DNA of 5,543 nt from an uncultured bacterium. GTDB taxonomy: Bacteria; Methylomirabilota; Methylomirabilia; Rokubacteriales; CSP1-6. A program made the position numbers and the translations under genes. Location: positions 1-5,543 of the forward strand of contig CAMLFJ010000253.1 of assembly GCA_946479205.1 (NCBI GenBank). Reading direction: 5' to 3'. Under the pieces are notes generated by a model. The model saw only the letters and a program-made list of their open reading frames with translations. It did no database searches and was not told the origin of the DNA. Shown here one piece after another: positions 1 through 5,543 of this stretch (the stretch's first letter is position 1; the number at the start of each line of letters is the position of its first letter).

Positions 1-860
1 ACCGCGCTGCCGATGGCGGTCATGAGCGGGGAGCCGTTGAAGGTGCCGCCCTGGTCGCCGTACTCGAAGCAGCACACGTGCTCCGCGGCCAGCAGGGCCG
101 CGAGCGGCACGCCGCCCCCCAGTCCCTTGCCGAGGGTCAGGATGTCGGGCTCGACCCCCGCGTGCTCGAAGGCGAAGAAGCGCCCGGTCCGGCCGATGCC
201 GGTCTGGATCTCGTCGAGGATCAGGAGCAGGCCGGTCTCCTTCGTCAGGGTCCGGAGCCCGCGGATGAAGTCGTCGCCCGCCGGGTAGACGCCGGCCTCG
301 CCCTGGATGGGCTCGAGCATGACCGCCACCGTGCGGGGGGTGATGGCGCGCTTCACCGCGTCCAGGTCGCCGAGGGGCACCTTGGTGAAGCCACTGACCT
401 TGGGCTCGAAGAGCGCCTCCCACGCGGGCTTGCCGGAGGCGGCCATGGTGGCCAGCGTGCGGCCGTGGAAGCCGTGATCCATCGTGATGATCTCGTGGGC
501 GCCGTCGCGGTGGCGGGCCCCCCACTTCCGCGCGAGCTTGATCGCGCCCTCGTTGGCCTCCGCGCCGCTGTTGCAGAAGAAGACCTCGGCGAGGCCGGCG
601 CGATCGGCGAGCAGGCGCGCCAGCCGCGCCATCTCCGCGTTGTAGTAGGCGGGGCTGCAGTTGATCAGCCGCCGGGCCTGGAAGGCGATCGCCTCGGTCA
701 TCACGGACGGGGAGTGCCCGAGGCAGTTCACCGCCCAGCCCTGCACGAAGTCGAGGTAGGTCTTGCCCTCCTCGTCCTGGAGCCAGGAGCCGTGGCCCTC
801 CACCATGACCACGGGGGGCCGGTCCGCCACCTTCATGACTGCCGTCAGATCGGTGCTCAT
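1..860 (-). CDS. argD: Acetylornithine aminotransferase (class III, PLP-dependent), 3' end cut off by the window edge
   Basis: Transfers the amino group of glutamate to N-acetylglutamate semialdehyde, giving N2-acetylornithine in cytosolic arginine synthesis. From the ATG at 860-858 I read 286 full codons; class III enzymes of this type are near 400 residues, so roughly the last 110 lie outside. Visible landmarks in order: SGAEANE (98-104) and HGFHGRT (129-135), which form the cofactor pocket; EPIQGE (183-188); [11 protein letters not shown] (216-226), whose Asp contacts the PLP pyridine nitrogen; the Schiff-base Lys245 in TLGKGLGGG; and GGTFNGSPL (271-279). The wording [15 protein letters not shown] and [17 protein letters not shown] recalls betaproteobacterial ArgD from memory. 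The start is supported by AGAGGA at 865-870, four bases upstream, and by the ATGA overlap with the upstream acetyltransferase gene. Other class III transaminases (succinylornithine, GABA) are possible by sequence alone, but the ArgR-controlled operon favours ArgD. Confidence 0.9.
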
Positions 861-1345
861 GCTGTCCTCTCTTCGTGGGAGTGGCCGGCCTCGCTCAGGG
901 CATAGGGGCGCTCGGCGCGCCGCTCCATGAGCCGGTCCGGGTGGCGCGCGTCGCGGAAGCCGTGCTGGCGGTAGAGCCCGTGGGCGTCCCGCGTGAACAG
1001 GGTCCAGAGGCGCAGGTTCTGTAGCTCCGGGTGACTCGTGATGCAGGCCATGATCCGCTTGCCGATGCCCCGGCCGCGGTCGCGGTCCAGCACGAAGACG
1101 TCGCAGACGTAGGCGAACGTGGCGCGGTCGCTGATGACGCGGGCGAACCCCACCTGCCGGCCGCCGTCGAACGCGCCGAAGCAGATCGAGTGGCGGATGG
1201 ACCGCTCCATGACCTCGCGCGGAATCCCGGTGGCCCAGTAGGACGACCCGGCGAGGAAGTCGTGGATCGCGTCGAGGTCGAGCCGCGCGGGATCGGTGGT
1301 GACCAGGATGCCGCCGTCGTGCCGCTCGTGGTGCATGCGCCTCAC
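857..1345 (-). CDS. GNAT-family N-acetyltransferase, substrate unknown
   Basis: A 162-residue single-domain acetyl-CoA-dependent N-acetyltransferase. The acetyl-CoA signature R/QxxGxG/A is visible as R90-G-R-G-I-G95 after the strand [10 protein letters not shown] (77-86), and the C-terminal Y125xxxG-F130 motif follows RDAHGLY. The central strand [13 protein letters not shown] (61-73) is typical of small generic GNAT proteins. It sits between argR and argD with 4-base overlaps on both sides (GTGA at 1342-1345, ATGA at 857-860), so it is almost certainly co-translated with them. That context hints at a role in arginine or acetyl-amino-acid metabolism, but the sequence does not resemble the short N-acetylglutamate synthases I can recall, so I do not call it ArgA. 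The start is uncertain: GTG at 1345 overlaps the argR stop, while an in-frame ATG at 1336 has a GGAAGGGAG stretch upstream at a better distance (about 10 bases) and would remove three residues. Confidence 0.88.
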
Positions 1346-1833
1346 GCTCCCTTCCGGGCCGCGAGGGGGGCGCGCAGCCGCCGCTCGAGGAGCCGGGCGG
1401 CGGCCGGCCCGGTGGCGGCCACGAACACGGTGTCGTCGCCCGCGATGGTGCCGACCACCTCGGGCAGCAGGGCCTCGTCGAGGACGCGGGCGAGGGGATG
1501 GGCCCCCGCGGGCGGCGTGCGGATCACCACGAGCGAGGCGGCGGCCCGCACCGAGAGCACGAACTCGCCCAGCGTCCGCTCGAGCGCGGAGCGCCGGGTC
1601 TCCGCGGGCACGAAGGCGCCGGCGGGGGTGGTCACGTAGCCGGTCGGGGTCTTGGCGAGCCCGAGGGTCTTGAGGTCACGGGACAGCGTCGGCTGGGCCA
1701 CCGCGATCCCGCGCCGCCGCAGCCGGCGCTGGAGCTCCTCCTGCGAGCGCACCCCGCCCTGCCCGACGAGGGCGAGGATCTCCCGCCGCCGCCGCCCGGT
1801 CTCTCCGCCTTCCGGTGCATATATATTTTTCAT
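1342..1833 (-). CDS. argR: Arginine repressor ArgR/AhrC
   Basis: Arginine-responsive hexameric DNA-binding regulator of arginine synthesis genes; 163 residues against a usual 150-160. The N-terminal winged helix includes SQEELQRRL (30-38) and the recognition helix [16 protein letters not shown] (46-61), closer to B. subtilis AhrC than to the E. coli form. A linker leads to the C-terminal oligomerisation and arginine-binding domain, with [12 protein letters not shown] (109-120) and GTIAGDDT (128-135); the paired Asp133-Asp134 match the arginine-contacting aspartates of the family. It is the first gene of the argR-GNAT-argD operon. The ATG at 1833 is the only sensible start: no ATG or GTG lies in frame just upstream, and the next in-frame GTG would remove the first helix of the DNA-binding domain. 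No Shine-Dalgarno precedes it. Codons 2-6 (Lys-Asn-Ile-Tyr-Ala) are AT-rich in a gene otherwise very GC-rich because they overlap an ARG box; see the operator entry. Autoregulation is inferred. Confidence 0.95.
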
Positions 1834-1931: not shown

Positions 1932-2504
1932 ATGTCGAGACGCGCGTGGGCGTGGGGCGTGCCGGCCGCGGTGCTCGTGCTGGCCGCGCTCGCCGGGCTC
2001 TACGCCGTGTCCACCCCGCGCTACGCGCTCTATCGCCTGGGGGTGGCGATGCAGGCCCACGACGTGGCGGCGGCCGAGCGCTACTTCGACGTGGAGCGGA
2101 TCGCGGACGGGGCCACCGAGGTGATCGTGGCCGACTACCTCGCGCGCCAGCCCGAGCCCACCAGCGCGGCCGAGACGGCGGGGCGCCAGCTCACCGCCAG
2201 CGTGGCCAAGCGCCGGCTACGGCCGCAGGTGATGACGCGGGTGCGTCTCGAGATCCGGCGGAGCGTGGAGCGGGCGGGCGTCCAGGCCACCGCCCTCGCG
2301 CTGCCGGTGGGAGCCGTCGCGGTCTTCCGCGCGTTCCAGATCTCGAGCGCGGGGCCGGACGTCTGGGTCACCTACCGCGATCCCACCCAGGGCCCGGTCC
2401 GGTTCCGGATGAGCCGCCAGGGCGGCCGCGGCTGGCAGATCAGCGAGCTCGACCCCGAGTGGGTGCGCCGCCGGACGCAGGAGGAGCCGCCGCGGATCCG
2501 CTGA
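1932..2504 (+). CDS. DUF2939-like membrane-anchored or secreted protein of unknown function
   Basis: A 190-residue protein. After a short basic N-terminus (MSRR) comes one hydrophobic segment, GVPAAVLVLAALAGLYAV (about 9-26), which could be a signal anchor or an uncleaved signal peptide; the rest would lie outside the cytoplasm. The following stretch PRYALYRLGVAMQAHDVAAAERYFDVERI (29-57) is the DUF2939 pattern of a helical segment leading to an aromatic-Asp-hydrophobic motif. The C-terminal half, with VWVTYRDPTQGPVRFRMSRQ (144-163), reads as beta strands. I assign no function; the family has no established one that I know. It is divergent from argR with a 98-base gap and its last 65 bases overlap the opposing end of trpE(G). 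The ribosome site is weak (GGACGGG just upstream of the ATG). A GTG at 1921 opens a different frame and is not an alternative start. Confidence 0.75.
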   Translation: MSRRAWAWGVPAAVLVLAALAGLYAVSTPRYALYRLGVAMQAHDVAAAERYFDVERIADGATEVIVADYLARQPEPTSAAETAGRQLTASVAKRRLRPQVMTRVRLEIRRSVERAGVQATALALPVGAVAVFRAFQISSAGPDVWVTYRDPTQGPVRFRMSRQGGRGWQISELDPEWVRRRTQEEPPRIR

Positions 2505-4653
2505 TCCGGTCCGCGATCAGCCCGGTCACCACGTTGCGGAGCAGCCGGAGCCCGACGTCGCCCTCGAGCGACATGATGGACTCGGGATGGAACTGCACCG
2601 CGGCCAGCGGCAGGTGCACGTGCTCCACCGCCATCACCACGCCGTCGTCGCTCTCCGCGGTCACCTCCAGCACGGACGGCAGCTTCTCGCGGATCGCGAA
2701 GAGGGAATGGTAGCGGCCCGCGGTGAACTCGCCCGGGAGGCCGGCGAAGAGGCGCCCGCCGCGGACCTGGATGCGCGAGGCCTTGCCGTGCATCGGGTAG
2801 TCGAGGACGCCCAGCTCGCCGCCCAGGTGCTCGACCAGGCCCTGCAGTCCCAGGCAGACCCCGAACGTGGGGATTCCGCGCGCGAGCAGCGCCTTCAACG
2901 TGCCGGACAGATCGAAATCGCTCGGGGTGCCGGGGCCGGGCGAGAGCACCACCAGGTCGGGGCGCAGCTCGTCGAGCACGCTCGCCGGGAAGCCGGCCCG
3001 CCGCGTCGTGACCTCGGCGCCGGTCTGGCGGAGATAGTTCGCGAGCGTGTGGACGAAGGAATCCTGGTGGTCCACCAGGAGCACGCGCCGGCCCGCCCCG
3101 CCGCGCGGGGCCTCGACCCGCGCGCCCGCCTCCACCCCGCGGGGGCGACGGAGAGCGTCGAGGAATGCGGAGGCCTTCAGCCGCGTCTCCTCCTCCTCGG
3201 CGTCGGGGTCGGAGTCGTAGAGGAGCGTGGCCCCGGCCCGCACCTCGGCCGCGCCGTCCTTGACCCGGATCGTGCGGAGGGTGAGCCCGGTATTGAGGTT
3301 GCCGTCGAAGCCGAGCAGGCCGACCGCGCCGCCGTACCAGGCGCGGGGCGACCGCTCGTGGTCCTCCAGGAACTGCATGGCCCACGCCTTCGGCGCGCCG
3401 GTGACGGTGACCGCCCACGTGTGCGCGAGGAAGGCGTCGAGCGCGTCGAAGCCGGGCCGCAGCCGGCCCTCCACGTGGTCCACGGTGTGGATGAGCCGCG
3501 CGTACATCTCGATCTGACGGCGGCCGATCACCCGCACGCTGCCCGGGACGCAGATGCGCGACTTGTCGTTGCGGTCCACGTCGGTGCACATCGTGAGCTC
3601 CGACTCGTCCTTGGCCGAGTTGAGCAGGGCCTGGATCTGGGCCGCGTCCGCGATGGCGTCGCGGCCGCGCGCGATCGTGCCCGAGATCGGGCAGGTCTCC
3701 ACGCGGTCGCCGTCCACCCGCACGTACATCTCGGGGGAGGCGCCCACCAGGTACTCCGCGTCGCCCAGGTTCATCAGGAACCCGTAGGGGGCGGGGTTGC
3801 GCTCGCGCAGGCGGCGGAAGAGCTCCGACGGCGGCGAGGGGCAGGGCTCGAAGAAGGTCTGGCCGGGGACCACCTCGAAGAGATCGCCGCGCTTGAAGGC
3901 CTCGCGGGCCACGCGGACGACCGCCGCGTACGCGCCGGGCTCGTGGTCGCCCGTCCGGGGCACCGTCGCGGCCCCCGCGAACGGGCGCGCGGCCGCCGCC
4001 GCGCGGGGCAGGCCGGCGGTGGCGCGGCCGCCCACCTCGAAGTCGTAGCGCCGCCGCTGGGCTACCTCGCGGCGGTGGTCCACGATGAGCAGCTCGTCGG
4101 GGAGGTAGAGGACGAGATCGCGCTGGTCGGCCGGGCGCGGCAGCCGCGGGCGGATCGGCTCGAACTGGAACGCGAGGTCGTAGCCGAAGGCGCCGTAGAG
4201 CCCGAGGTGCGGCTCCTCGGGGTGGCGGAAGAGCGCGATCAGCGCACGGAGCAGCGAGAAGACCGACGGCTGGCGGCTCCGGTCTTCTTCCGCGAAACCC
4301 GCCGCGTGCACGCGCGCGGTCACCGCCACCGCGTCGTCGGTCCGCTCGAAGTCCTCGATCTGATCGAGGCCCTGGAGCGCCTGGGCGATGGCGGGGAGCA
4401 GGACGAGGCCCCGGGGATTGAGCGCCTCCGCGCGGAGCCGGCGGCCGCGGGCCACCAGCGCGAGCGGCGGATCCACGAAGCCCATGTCCCACCGCGTGTA
4501 GCGGCCGGGATACTCGTAGCTCGATGCGAGGAGCGCGCCGCGGCGTGCGTCGAGGGCGTCCACGACCGGCTCGATCGCGTTCGCCATCGGGATGGGCTCG
4601 ACGGTCCGGTGGACGCGGATGCCCCCGCCGGTGAGGTAGCTGTCGCTGGTCAT
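2440..4653 (-). CDS. trpE(G): Fused anthranilate synthase, TrpE-TrpG in one polypeptide
   Basis: First committed step of tryptophan synthesis: chorismate plus glutamine gives anthranilate, pyruvate and glutamate. 737 residues, in the range of fused rhizobial-type enzymes. TrpE part (about 1-505): SSYEYPGRYTRWDMGFVDPP (44-63), where Trp feedback residues of the family sit; NPAPYGFLMNLG (286-297); GASPEMYV (304-311); CPISGTIARG (321-330); DVDRNDKSRICVPGSVRV (358-375); VTGAPKAWAMQ (417-427); YGGAVGLLGFDGNLNTGLTLRT (440-461 overall). A short linker (about 505-521) leads to the class I glutamine amidotransferase TrpG part (522-716), with LSPGPGTPSDF, nucleophile Cys600 in GVCLGLQG, and His689 and Glu691 in QFHPES, so ammonia-producing activity looks intact. 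The last 20 residues are an Ala/Gly/Pro/Arg tail lying where the gene overlaps the opposing DUF2939 gene. I choose the ATG at 4653, nine bases after AGGGAG; the frame stays open to a GTG at 4707, but that lies in the attenuator tail. Regulation: leader attenuation and probably Trp feedback. Confidence 0.95.
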   Translation of the reverse strand: MTSDSYLTGGGIRVHRTVEPIPMANAIEPVVDALDARRGALLASSYEYPGRYTRWDMGFVDPPLALVARGRRLRAEALNPRGLVLLPAIAQALQGLDQIEDFERTDDAVAVTARVHAAGFAEEDRSRQPSVFSLLRALIALFRHPEEPHLGLYGAFGYDLAFQFEPIRPRLPRPADQRDLVLYLPDELLIVDHRREVAQRRRYDFEVGGRATAGLPRAAAAARPFAGAATVPRTGDHEPGAYAAVVRVAREAFKRGDLFEVVPGQTFFEPCPSPPSELFRRLRERNPAPYGFLMNLGDAEYLVGASPEMYVRVDGDRVETCPISGTIARGRDAIADAAQIQALLNSAKDESELTMCTDVDRNDKSRICVPGSVRVIGRRQIEMYARLIHTVDHVEGRLRPGFDALDAFLAHTWAVTVTGAPKAWAMQFLEDHERSPRAWYGGAVGLLGFDGNLNTGLTLRTIRVKDGAAEVRAGATLLYDSDPDAEEEETRLKASAFLDALRRPRGVEAGARVEAPRGGAGRRVLLVDHQDSFVHTLANYLRQTGAEVTTRRAGFPASVLDELRPDLVVLSPGPGTPSDFDLSGTLKALLARGIPTFGVCLGLQGLVEHLGGELGVLDYPMHGKASRIQVRGGRLFAGLPGEFTAGRYHSLFAIREKLPSVLEVTAESDDGVVMAVEHVHLPLAAVQFHPESIMSLEGDVGLRLLRNVVTGLIADRISGSAAAPPASGGAPTRGRAR

Positions 4654-4662
4654 GGCCGGAAT

Positions 4663-4668
4663 CTCCCT
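4663..4668 (-). promoter_or_regulatory. Ribosome binding site deciding the trpE(G) start
   Basis: AGGGAG on the minus strand, nine bases before the ATG at 4653. It favours this start over the longer reading frame that opens at a GTG at 4707 inside the terminator tail. A 12-base palindrome, GGAGCCGGCTCC (4676-4687), lies just upstream and could influence access to this site. Confidence 0.75.
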
Positions 4669-4700
4669 TTCCCAAGGAGCCGGCTCCCAGGCGGGGCGGG

Positions 4701-4736
4701 AGAACACAGAAGCCGCCCCAGCCTGGGGGCGGCTCC
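4701..4736 (-). terminator. trp attenuator (intrinsic terminator, arms 3:4) before trpE(G)
   Basis: On the minus strand AGCCGCCCC (4734-4726) pairs perfectly with GGGGCGGCT (4719-4711) around the loop CAGGCT. The stem extends by a G-U pair (4735:4710) and a G-C pair (4736:4709) to 11 bp. It runs into TCTGTGTTCT (4710-4701), six T in ten bases, which stands out in this GC-rich region though it is not a pure U-tract. It lies about 50 bases after the leader peptide stop and 55 before the trpE(G) ATG, the expected place for a Trp attenuator. Confidence 0.8.
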
Positions 4737-4800
4737 GGTCTCGCCTAGGTCACTCGCGCACGTGCTTGAGCCGGCGGGCCCGCCCCTCAGGGGGAGGGCC
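4726..4800 (-). promoter_or_regulatory. trp leader switch region: pause hairpin 1:2 and antiterminator 2:3
   Basis: Arm 1, GGCCCTCCCC (4800-4791), pairs with arm 2, GGGGCGGGCC (4786-4777), at 9 of 10 positions. The loop CTGA contains the leader peptide stop codon, and arm 1 begins in the last Trp codon. Arm 2 can instead pair with the 5' arm of the terminator: GGGGCGG (4786-4780) with CCGCCCC (4732-4726), plus CCGG (4774-4771) with CCGG (4738-4735). A ribosome stalled at the Trp codons would cover arm 1, free arm 2 and block the terminator; a ribosome reaching the stop would permit termination. Pairings were read by eye; no folding energy was computed. Confidence 0.7.
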
Positions 4801-4837
4801 ACCACCAGGACCAGGCACCGGCACGCGTCGATTTCAC
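4787..4837 (-). CDS. trpL: trp leader peptide
   Basis: A 16-codon frame GTG...TGA encoding MKSTRAGAWSWWWPSP. Trp codons are at residues 9, 11, 12 and 13; four Trp codons in sixteen, directly upstream of an anthranilate synthase gene and followed by competing hairpins, is diagnostic of ribosome-mediated attenuation. The run of three Trp codons resembles the rhizobial leader peptide, which also precedes a fused trpE(G). Its role is cis-regulatory: scarce charged tRNA-Trp stalls the ribosome here. No Shine-Dalgarno precedes the GTG, and the predicted transcription start falls on or beside it, suggesting leaderless initiation. The only other in-frame start codon nearby is a TTG (4873-4871) that is part of the -35 box. 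Confidence 0.85.
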   Translation of the reverse strand: MKSTRAGAWSWWWPSP

Positions 4838-4844
4838 GAGCCGA

Positions 4845-4873
4845 AGAGTCGCAGAGACCGGCGCGCCTGTCAA
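4845..4873 (-). promoter_or_regulatory. Predicted trpL-trpE(G) promoter
   Basis: A perfect -35 TTGACA (4868-4873, minus strand) followed after exactly 17 bp by GACTCT (4845-4850), a poor match to the -10 consensus (2 of 6) though similar weak -10 elements are tolerated in GC-rich bacteria. Standard spacing puts +1 at 4837 or 4838, on or next to the GTG of trpL. Confidence 0.6.
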
Positions 4874-4969: not shown

Positions 4970-5543
4970 ATGGCGCAAGTCGTTGGATTCATTGGGCTTG
5001 GTATCATGGGTCGTCCCATGGCCAAGAACCTGCTAAAGGCCGGATATCCACTGGTTGTCCACAGCCGGAGCCAGGGGCCGGTGCAGGAGCTGGTCGGGGC
5101 AGGGGCCAAGTCGGCCTCGAGCCCGAAGGACGTCGCGGCCCGGTCCGACGTCATCATCACCATGCTGCCGAACTCGCCGGACGTGGAGCTGGTGGCGCTC
5201 GGCAAGGACGGCCTGATCGAGGGCGTCAAGCGCGGGCAGCTCTTCGCCGACATGTCCACGATCTCGCCGCTGGTCTCCCAGAAGGTCGGCAAGGCGCTCG
5301 GCGCCAAGGGCGTGCGCATGCTCGACGCGCCGGTCTCGGGCGGCGAGAAGGGGGCGATCGACGCCGCGCTGTCCATCATGGTGGGCGGCGAGAAGGCCGA
5401 CTTCGACGCGGCGCTGCCCGTCCTCCAGGCCCTCGGCAAGACCATCACCCACCTGGGGCCGCTCGGCGCGGGCGGGTTCACCAAGCTTGCCAACCAGATC
5501 ATCGTGGCGGTGAATCTCACCGCGCTCGGCGAGGCGCTCACGC
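4970..5543 (+). CDS. garR: 2-hydroxy-3-oxopropionate (tartronate semialdehyde) reductase, 3' end cut off by the window edge
   Basis: Beta-hydroxyacid dehydrogenase that would reduce tartronate semialdehyde to D-glycerate with NAD(P)H in glyoxylate/glycerate metabolism. 191 codons are present of a usual 290-300. Seen: Rossmann dinucleotide loop GFIGLGIMGRPMA (6-18); SDVIITMLPNSPDVELVALG (59-78), very close to E. coli GarR as I recall it; DMSTISP (94-100); substrate motif DAPVSGG (119-125); and the catalytic Lys172 with Asn175 in GAGGFTKLANQ (167-176 overall). Arg33 after the second strand (HSRS) may favour NADPH, an inference. The start is the ATG after GAGGT (4961-4965) with a short 4-base spacer; the Rossmann loop begins at residue 6 as is normal. 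3-Hydroxyisobutyrate dehydrogenase and other family members are the main alternatives; the PNSP and VALG wording favours GarR/GlxR. It is divergent from the trp leader and has no evident functional tie to it. Confidence 0.85.
   Translation, partial: MAQVVGFIGLGIMGRPMAKNLLKAGYPLVVHSRSQGPVQELVGAGAKSASSPKDVAARSDVIITMLPNSPDVELVALGKDGLIEGVKRGQLFADMSTISPLVSQKVGKALGAKGVRMLDAPVSGGEKGAIDAALSIMVGGEKADFDAALPVLQALGKTITHLGPLGAGGFTKLANQIIVAVNLTALGEALT

What the first reader, a model, noticed from the sequence alone, without database searches (positions are those of the whole stretch)
4701..4837. Complete trp attenuation leader upstream of a fused trpE(G)
Seen: a 16-residue frame with four Trp codons (WSWWW), then a hairpin around its stop codon, then an 11-bp terminator-like stem with a T-rich tail, then the trpE(G) ribosome site. 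Known: rhizobial fused trpE(G) genes are controlled by a trpL leader containing a Trp-Trp-Trp run. Inferred: this gene is attenuated by tRNA-Trp charging. Such a short GTG-started peptide gene is normally missed by annotation, and the neighbouring genes do not look rhizobial.
Basis: partly seen in the sequence, partly recalled or inferred. Interest (0 to 1): 0.75.

Follow-up and report, generated by a model that had tools for sequence, protein, structure and literature searches.

The report
Tryptophan attenuator before fused trpE(G)
Upstream of the first tryptophan-making gene of an uncultured bacterium lies a tiny tryptophan-rich reading frame followed by an off-switch hairpin, very probably the kind of tryptophan-sensing switch known from rhizobia, here in a different bacterial phylum.

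Summary
On the minus strand, 4837-4787 encodes VKSTRAGAWSWWWPSP*, followed by a hairpin around the stop codon, an 11-bp terminator-like stem (4736-4709) with an interrupted T-rich tail, and a ribosome site before fused trpE(G) (ATG 4653). TrpE(G) is 98% identical to a Methylomirabilota-labelled protein. A covariance model built from 22 other leaders finds exactly this stretch (40 bits, E 2.4e-7). Of 97 distinct trpE(G) loci, 88 have a short frame with at least two consecutive Trp codons there (about 1% of shuffles): the window, 81 of 84 Pseudomonadota, 6 of 12 Chloroflexota. Of the other six Chloroflexota, three match the T-box model and a fourth shows its motif. New here: TTGACA (4873-4868) is spaced to put the transcript start at the GTG, so trpL is probably leaderless, as reported for Sinorhizobium meliloti; similar spacing occurs in 5 of 6 Chloroflexota and 80 of 81 Pseudomonadota leaders. 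Verdict: very probably a real trp attenuator, a new member of a known kind. Main gap: no other Methylomirabilota DNA was reached, partly through my misframed query.

The parts
4868..4873 (-). -35 element TTGACA
   Evidence: Exact consensus starting 36 nt before the GTG; TTG[AC] at -34..-38 of a leader start in 5 of 6 Chloroflexota and 80 of 81 Pseudomonadota leaders
4845..4850 (-). putative -10 element GACTCT, 17 nt after the -35, 7 nt before GTG
   Evidence: Position by analogy only; matches TATAAT at 2 of 6 positions; the consensus scan found no promoter
4787..4837 (-). trpL leader frame, VKSTRAGAWSWWWPSP*, probably translated from a leaderless transcript
4799..4813 (-). Trp codon cluster TGG TCC TGG TGG TGG
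4778..4799 (-). 1:2 hairpin around the stop codon
   Evidence: fold predictions
4780..4786 (-). segment 2, GGGGCGG, can pair with the terminator 5' arm (antiterminator)
   Evidence: 7 contiguous pairs, not significant in this sequence alone (P 0.115); same place as the GGCGGC-like segment after the stop codon in other leaders
4709..4736 (-). 3:4 intrinsic-terminator-like hairpin, 11 bp
   Evidence: covariation across 23 leaders
4699..4708 (-). moderately T-rich tail TGTGTTCTCC
4663..4667 (-). ribosome-binding site GGGAG of trpE(G)
   Evidence: sequence; SD-like match
2440..4653 (-). fused anthranilate synthase trpE(G), 737 aa
   Evidence: NCBIfam NF010081 1166.8 bits and TIGR01815 1152.8 bits, both over cut-off (on the frame extended to 4707); Pfam Chorismate_bind and GATase; 98% identical to P0001

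Best explanation
A ribosome-mediated transcription attenuator of the trpL type controls fused trpE(G) in a Methylomirabilota (Rokubacteria-like) bacterium. RNA polymerase probably starts at or next to the GTG (4837), so the ribosome loads on a leaderless RNA and translates the 16-codon peptide. With enough Trp-tRNA the ribosome passes the four Trp codons to the stop codon, segment 2 is covered, the 4736-4709 hairpin forms and transcription stops near 4700. With scarce Trp-tRNA the ribosome stalls on the Trp codons, segment 2 (4786-4780) pairs with the terminator 5' arm and trpE(G) is transcribed. Shown by comparison: the conserved leader frame, the conserved stem with compensatory changes, the conserved spacing of a -35-like box. 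Inferred: the transcript start, translation of the frame, the switch, and the response to Trp.
For: Anatomy. Leader frame with at least 2 consecutive TGG in 88 of 97 distinct trpE(G) loci and with 3 in 57, against 1.0% and 0.02% of 4850 shuffles and 1.1% and 0.04% of 2807 other places in the same loci. Leave-window-out covariance model: 40 bits, E 2.4e-7, at 4702-4813 minus; the next best match in the window is 13 bits, on the complement of the same hairpin. Terminator stem: 5 of 10 pairs with changes on both sides (7 of 500 shuffles reach this); columns 81-108 are GC 10, AU 8, GU 4, none broken, 1 gap; covariation score above all 500 shuffles and all 6 slid versions. Spacing of -35 to start codon. 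Same mechanism, and a transcript beginning at the trpL ATG, stated for S. meliloti trpE(G) (PMC7298713, passages).
Against: No Methylomirabilota sibling could be checked. The U-tract is interrupted; 3 of 6 Chloroflexota leaders (L061, L070, L090) have a GC-rich stem without a T-rich tail by eye (L061 and L070). The 2:3 pairing is 7 bp and not significant in this GC-rich sequence (P 0.115). In the covariation test the number of further pair types is no higher than in shuffles (245 of 500 reach it), and pairs 79, 80, 87 and 88 are broken in 7, 7, 5 and 15 of the rows. The model R1 holds only 6 base pairs, so its match is largely one of sequence. The -10 box is poor and the promoter scan found nothing. 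Leaderless translation from GTG is less usual than from ATG (recalled).
Confidence: 0.87

Rival explanations
1. Trp codons and stalling are as above, but the output is translational: the structures control access to the trpE(G) ribosome site rather than termination.
For: Three of 6 Chloroflexota relatives lack a T-rich tail after the stem; an upstream stretch can pair with the ribosome site in L066, L061 and L065 somewhat better than shuffles (P 0.05, 0.06, 0.07).
Against: In the window this complementarity is ordinary (P 0.28), as in L090 (0.19) and L062 (0.62); in L070 no ribosome site was found. The window, 3 of the 5 Chloroflexota in which a hairpin was found (in L090 none was) and 69 of 81 Pseudomonadota have at least 4 T in the tail window, which includes the last 2 bases of the stem.
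Confidence: 0.07
2. The leader has become mainly a source of a small RNA or peptide acting in trans (rnTrpL/RcsR1-like, peTrpL-like), with trpE(G) control secondary.
For: Rhizobial rnTrpL and peTrpL act in trans (PMC7298713 and PMC7143759, passages); RF02552 RcsR1 matches L001 at this place.
Against: RcsR1 does not match the window up to E 10. Of 8 genomes with a model R1 match at E <= 0.01 among 201 Chloroflexota, 5 are the training leaders beside trpE(G) and 3 have no Trp-codon run at the hit. No trans target was sought.
Confidence: 0.03
3. Chance: a GC-rich intergenic region with an accidental TGG run beside an ordinary hairpin.
For: Two-Trp frames are not very rare in shuffles of this region (2.3%).
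Against: Three consecutive Trp codons in 0.075% of shuffles; a like arrangement in 88 of 97 loci; model built without the window E 2.4e-7.
Confidence: 0.02

Closest known systems
Rhizobial trpL-trpE(G) attenuator (S. meliloti rnTrpL, peTrpL; Rfam RF02552 RcsR1)
   Same: Fused trpE(G) directly downstream, short frame with consecutive Trp codons, hairpin at the stop codon, GC-rich terminator; in the fetched rhizobial and other Pseudomonadota relatives a TTG[AC] box at a like distance from the start codon (80 of 81)
   Different: GTG start; Trp pattern W-S-W-W-W; frame ends PSP (Ensifer adhaerens L001: IWWWAR); weaker U-tract; RcsR1 model does not match; different phylum; TrpE(G) 60% identical to that of L001
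Chloroflexota trpL-type leaders before fused trpE(G) found here (G098, G074, G204, G114, G014, G194)
   Same: Closest leaders available: WWWP after the Trp run in 4 of 6, GGCGGC-like segment after the stop codon, GC-rich stem; L066 stem differs from the window's in one of 22 arm bases
   Different: L062 and L070 have ATG starts, L061 and L090 also offer one; three lack the T-rich tail; L065 and L066 have a second hairpin downstream
Escherichia coli trpL attenuator and Rfam RF00513 Trp_leader (both recalled)
   Same: Logic of ribosome stalling at Trp codons and alternative 2:3 / 3:4 pairing
   Different: E. coli leader has a 5' UTR with a Shine-Dalgarno site, an operon with trpE and a TrpR repressor (recalled); no Rfam match here
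T-box leader (RF00230)
   Same: T-boxes sense tRNA charging; found upstream of trpE(G) in other Chloroflexota here
   Different: No peptide; binds tRNA directly; no match in the window

Membership tests
trpL-type ribosome-mediated transcription attenuator | Short upstream frame with consecutive codons of the regulated amino acid | tested here: met
   4 Trp codons in 16, three consecutive
trpL-type ribosome-mediated transcription attenuator | Regulated gene makes that amino acid | tested here: met
   trpE(G), NF010081 and TIGR01815 over cut-off
trpL-type ribosome-mediated transcription attenuator | Intrinsic terminator between leader frame and gene | tested here: met
   predicted: 11-bp stem with T-rich tail, covariation in relatives; tail interrupted
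trpL-type ribosome-mediated transcription attenuator | Mutually exclusive antiterminator pairing | tested here: inconclusive
   7 bp possible, conserved position, but P 0.115 against shuffles
trpL-type ribosome-mediated transcription attenuator | Termination responds to charged tRNA-Trp through leader translation | not testable with these tools
   needs expression data
rhizobial rnTrpL / RcsR1 (RF02552) | Match to the Rfam model | tested here: not met
   no match in the window up to E 10; L001 matches at 97 bits
rhizobial rnTrpL / RcsR1 (RF02552) | Transcript begins at the start codon (leaderless trpL) | tested here: inconclusive
   -35 spacing consistent; start site not measured; S. meliloti 5' end at ATG per PMC7298713
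Rfam RF00513 Trp_leader (accession recalled) | Match to the Rfam model | tested here: not met
   not among the 4 matches up to E 10
T-box (RF00230) | Match to the Rfam model | tested here: not met
   no match in the window, against E 9e-8 to 1e-5 in L069, L068, L057

The most novel reading that the evidence does not exclude
One homologous regulatory unit, a leaderless trpL attenuator plus fused trpE(G), is shared by Methylomirabilota, Chloroflexota and Alphaproteobacteria, having been inherited or transferred together with the gene. Within Chloroflexota the attenuator has been swapped for a T-box (or the reverse), so that two unrelated RNA sensors of tRNA-Trp charging alternate on the same gene.
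Probability: 0.45. Interest if true: 0.55.

Novelty: new member of a known kind. Interest (0 to 1): 0.38.

Why it matters
It extends trp attenuation coupled to fused trpE(G) from rhizobia to Methylomirabilota and some Chloroflexota, suggests that leaderless translation of the leader is a widely shared trait of this switch, and points to a natural case where the same gene is read by an attenuator in some lineages and a T-box in others. It also marks a 16-codon gene that predicts how an uncultured bacterium senses tryptophan.

Tried and rejected
Rfam on the window: 4 matches up to E 10, all below gathering and none relevant. Plasmid collection for the leader region: no match. Viral contigs for trpE(G): 1 stretch matched a pattern, none a relative. 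Model R1 across 201 Chloroflexota genomes (stricter filters, which lose weak matches): the 3 hits other than training leaders (L139, L140, L141) have no Trp-codon run at the hit and look like chance. An additional hairpin hiding the ribosome site is not significant in the window. Horizontal transfer was left open: in a tree of 61 TrpE(G) rows (window, 12 Chloroflexota, 21 of 84 Pseudomonadota, 27 of 120 listed database hits) the window sits in a supported set of 28 rows, itself and the 27 database hits, which have no DNA here; the trpL label needs 4 changes, starred branches force 2, and several long branches make joins unsafe.

Own error: the only genome-contig scan used window:2440-4651, which is out of frame (the ATG is 4653-4651, so the reference should end at 4653). 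It still returned 56 loci, all of which match TrpE(G) by a correct tblastn at 53-67% identity, 53 of them over at least 707 residues and three (L030, L035, L053) over part only. None is titled Methylomirabilota; a correct query might have brought such contigs. The count of 97 excludes 22 of the 133 loci then held (L058-L060 and L071-L089, which did not reach 50% identity over 400 aligned residues or were not matched) and 15 duplicates. L134-L141 were fetched later and are not in that count. In the 2:3 pairing test the stop position of L062 was set by hand inside its longer frame, and for L065 the hairpin chosen by the script was the second, downstream one.

Full report
What is there. The feature lies on the minus strand in the 316-nt gap between trpE(G) (ATG 4653) and a divergent gene starting at 4970 that resembles 2-hydroxy-3-oxopropionate reductase. 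Reading 5' to 3': TTGACA (4873-4868), 17 nt, GACTCT (4850-4845), 7 nt, GTG (4837), 16 codons VKSTRAGAWSWWWPSP, TGA (4789-4787), GGGGCGG (4786-4780), the stem GGAGCCGCCCC-CAGGCT-GGGGCGGCTTC (4736-4709), tail TGTGTTCTCC, GGGAG (4667-4663), ATG (4653).

Is it chance? In 20,000 dinucleotide shuffles of the 400 nt upstream, a short frame with three consecutive Trp codons arises in 0.075% and with two in 2.3%. Stretch 4652-4840 folds better than all 200 shuffles (z -3.0), stretch 4695-4840 better than 198 of 200 (z -2.5). Stronger evidence comes from relatives.

The host. No whole genome is held for the window. TrpE(G) is 98% identical to P0001, labelled Methylomirabilota by its source (only the 8000 candidates sharing most words were scored, 120 listed). 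Of the seven listed hits whose shown name includes an organism, four read Methylomirabilota or Rokubacteria, two Dormibacteraeota and one Deferrimicrobiaceae; all seven lie with the window in one supported set of 28 rows in a tree of 61. The labels are the depositors' own, so the phylum is probable rather than proven.

Relatives. My single scan of genome contigs used a misframed query. It returned 56 loci, all matching TrpE(G) by a correct tblastn, 53 over at least 707 residues: L002 from a MAG labelled Chloroflexi, the other 55 Pseudomonadota by title. Through L002, 400 genomes of its phylum (L002 is Chloroflexota by treekit's label) were searched: 12 of 400 have fused TrpE(G) at E <= 1e-200. 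Of 398 genomes of the phylum of L053 (Pseudomonadota by the same label), 32 have a match at E <= 1e-180, with new loci given for 30. After filters and removal of duplicates, 97 distinct loci remained: the window, 12 Chloroflexota, 84 Pseudomonadota.

Leader frames. 88 of 97 have a frame with at least two consecutive Trp codons ending 117-204 nt before the matched start of trpE(G), and 57 have three. Shuffles give 1.0% and 0.02% (4850 shuffles), other places in the same loci 1.1% and 0.04% (2807 places), and the reverse complement of the same upstream regions 1 and 0 of 97. By group: window 1 of 1, Chloroflexota 6 of 12, Pseudomonadota 81 of 84. The nine without: L022, L033, L053 (Pseudomonadota); L063, L064, L002, L067, L068, L069 (Chloroflexota). 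Only 230 nt upstream were available for L067.

What the Chloroflexota without trpL have. L069, L068 and L057 (same genome as L002) match the T-box model (47.2, 41.5 and 38.9 bits; E 9e-8 to 1e-5; below the gathering score of 93). L067, cut by its contig end, shows the same GGGTGGCACCACG motif by eye but gave no match at E <= 0.1. The four form one supported group in the tree. T-boxes before trpE in Chloroflexi (Dehalococcoides) are in print (PMC2494555, passages). L063 has a type I chorismate mutase gene (PF07736) directly upstream of trpE(G); L064 looks similar by eye but was not scanned.

Structure. An alignment of 23 leaders (the window, 6 Chloroflexota, 16 Pseudomonadota; chosen by me out of 88 to limit redundancy) shows a common order: Trp codons, stop, a GGCGGC-like segment, GCCGCC-like, GGCGGC-like. 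On the terminator stem 83.2% of 226 cells pair (1 of 500 shuffles reaches this), 5 of 10 pairs have changes on both sides (7 of 500), columns 81-108 are GC 10, AU 8, GU 4 with none broken, and the covariation score of 0.225 exceeds all 500 shuffles and all six slid versions. Against: the count of further pair types is no better than shuffles (245 of 500), pairs 79, 80, 87 and 88 are broken in 7, 7, 5 and 15 rows, and related rows inflate such scores. A covariance model from 22 leaders without the window (97 positions, 6 base pairs, so largely sequence) finds 4702-4813 minus at 40 bits, E 2.4e-7; the tool calls such E-values rough.

Antiterminator. Segment 2 (4786-4780) can form 7 contiguous pairs with the terminator 5' arm, but 11.5% of shuffled segments do as well. 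Pairing of at least 6 bp occurs in 4 of 5 Chloroflexota with a hairpin found (P 0.21, 0.00, 0.05, 0.105; the fifth, L070, 5 bp, P 0.345) and in 55 of 81 Pseudomonadota; means are 7.0 against 5.2 shuffled and 5.9 against 4.7. The switch is plausible by position and analogy, not proven by this statistic.

Leaderless start. No Shine-Dalgarno-like 4-mer precedes the GTG, and only 8 of 88 leaders have one before any in-frame start. TTG[AC] lies 34-38 nt before an in-frame leader start in the window, in 5 of 6 Chloroflexota (0.17 expected from other positions) and in 80 of 81 Pseudomonadota leaders (4.8 expected); strict TTGAC in 1 of 1, 4 of 6 and 32 of 81. In S. meliloti the RNA 5' end is the ATG of trpL (PMC7298713, passages). 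The simplest reading is that transcription in the window starts at the GTG. The -10 box is weak, the promoter scan found none and the start was not measured.

Distribution of the RNA element. Model R1 in 201 Chloroflexota genomes gave 8 with a match at E <= 0.01: five are training leaders; the other three have no Trp-codon run at the hit. It thus gave no sign of this element elsewhere, within the tool's stricter filters.

Novelty. Trp attenuation of fused trpE(G) is known in S. meliloti (PMC7298713, passages). Eight searches of open-licence PMC papers showed, in the part of each listing I saw (20 of 28, 20 of 35, 20 of 27, 12 of 1482, 15 of 53, 10 of 20, 12 of 12, 12 of 19), no title on a trp attenuator in Methylomirabilota/Rokubacteria or Chloroflexota. 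I saw passages of four papers and none in full. A 2010 comparative survey of attenuation cited in PMC4833913 was not looked up, so an earlier report is not excluded. I rate the finding a new member of a known kind.

Noticed in passing
L057, L068, L069 (and L067 by motif), upstream of trpE(G): T-box leaders instead of trpL before fused trpE(G) in Chloroflexota; in the two alignments shown (L069, L068) a UGG triplet follows the GAA of the specifier region, which would fit Trp, but the register is uncertain.
   Followed up: partly
L065 and L066, between trpL terminator and trpE(G): A second GC-rich hairpin followed by T-rich sequence lies downstream of the first, looking like a tandem terminator.
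   Followed up: no
L061, L070, L090: Leader stems without a T-rich tail, so these may act differently from an intrinsic terminator.
   Followed up: partly
window 4684-4675 and the like place in L065, L066: A GCCGG(G)CTCCT-like stretch recurs just before the trpE(G) ribosome site and could pair with it or with the terminator 5' arm; not significant in the window.
   Followed up: partly
window 2440-2504: trpE(G) (minus, ends 2440) and a DUF2939 gene (plus, 1932-2504) overlap tail to tail by 65 bases.
   Followed up: no
window 3-1833, minus: argR, a GNAT acetyltransferase gene and an argD-like gene overlap by a few bases in a row; an AT-rich stretch around 1820-1850 before argR could be an ArgR operator (motif recalled, not tested).
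   Followed up: no
L063:3630-3980 minus: A type I chorismate mutase gene (PF07736, 133 bits) directly precedes fused trpE(G), overlapping its start by a few bases, in a Chloroflexota genome where neither trpL nor a T-box motif was seen.
   Followed up: partly
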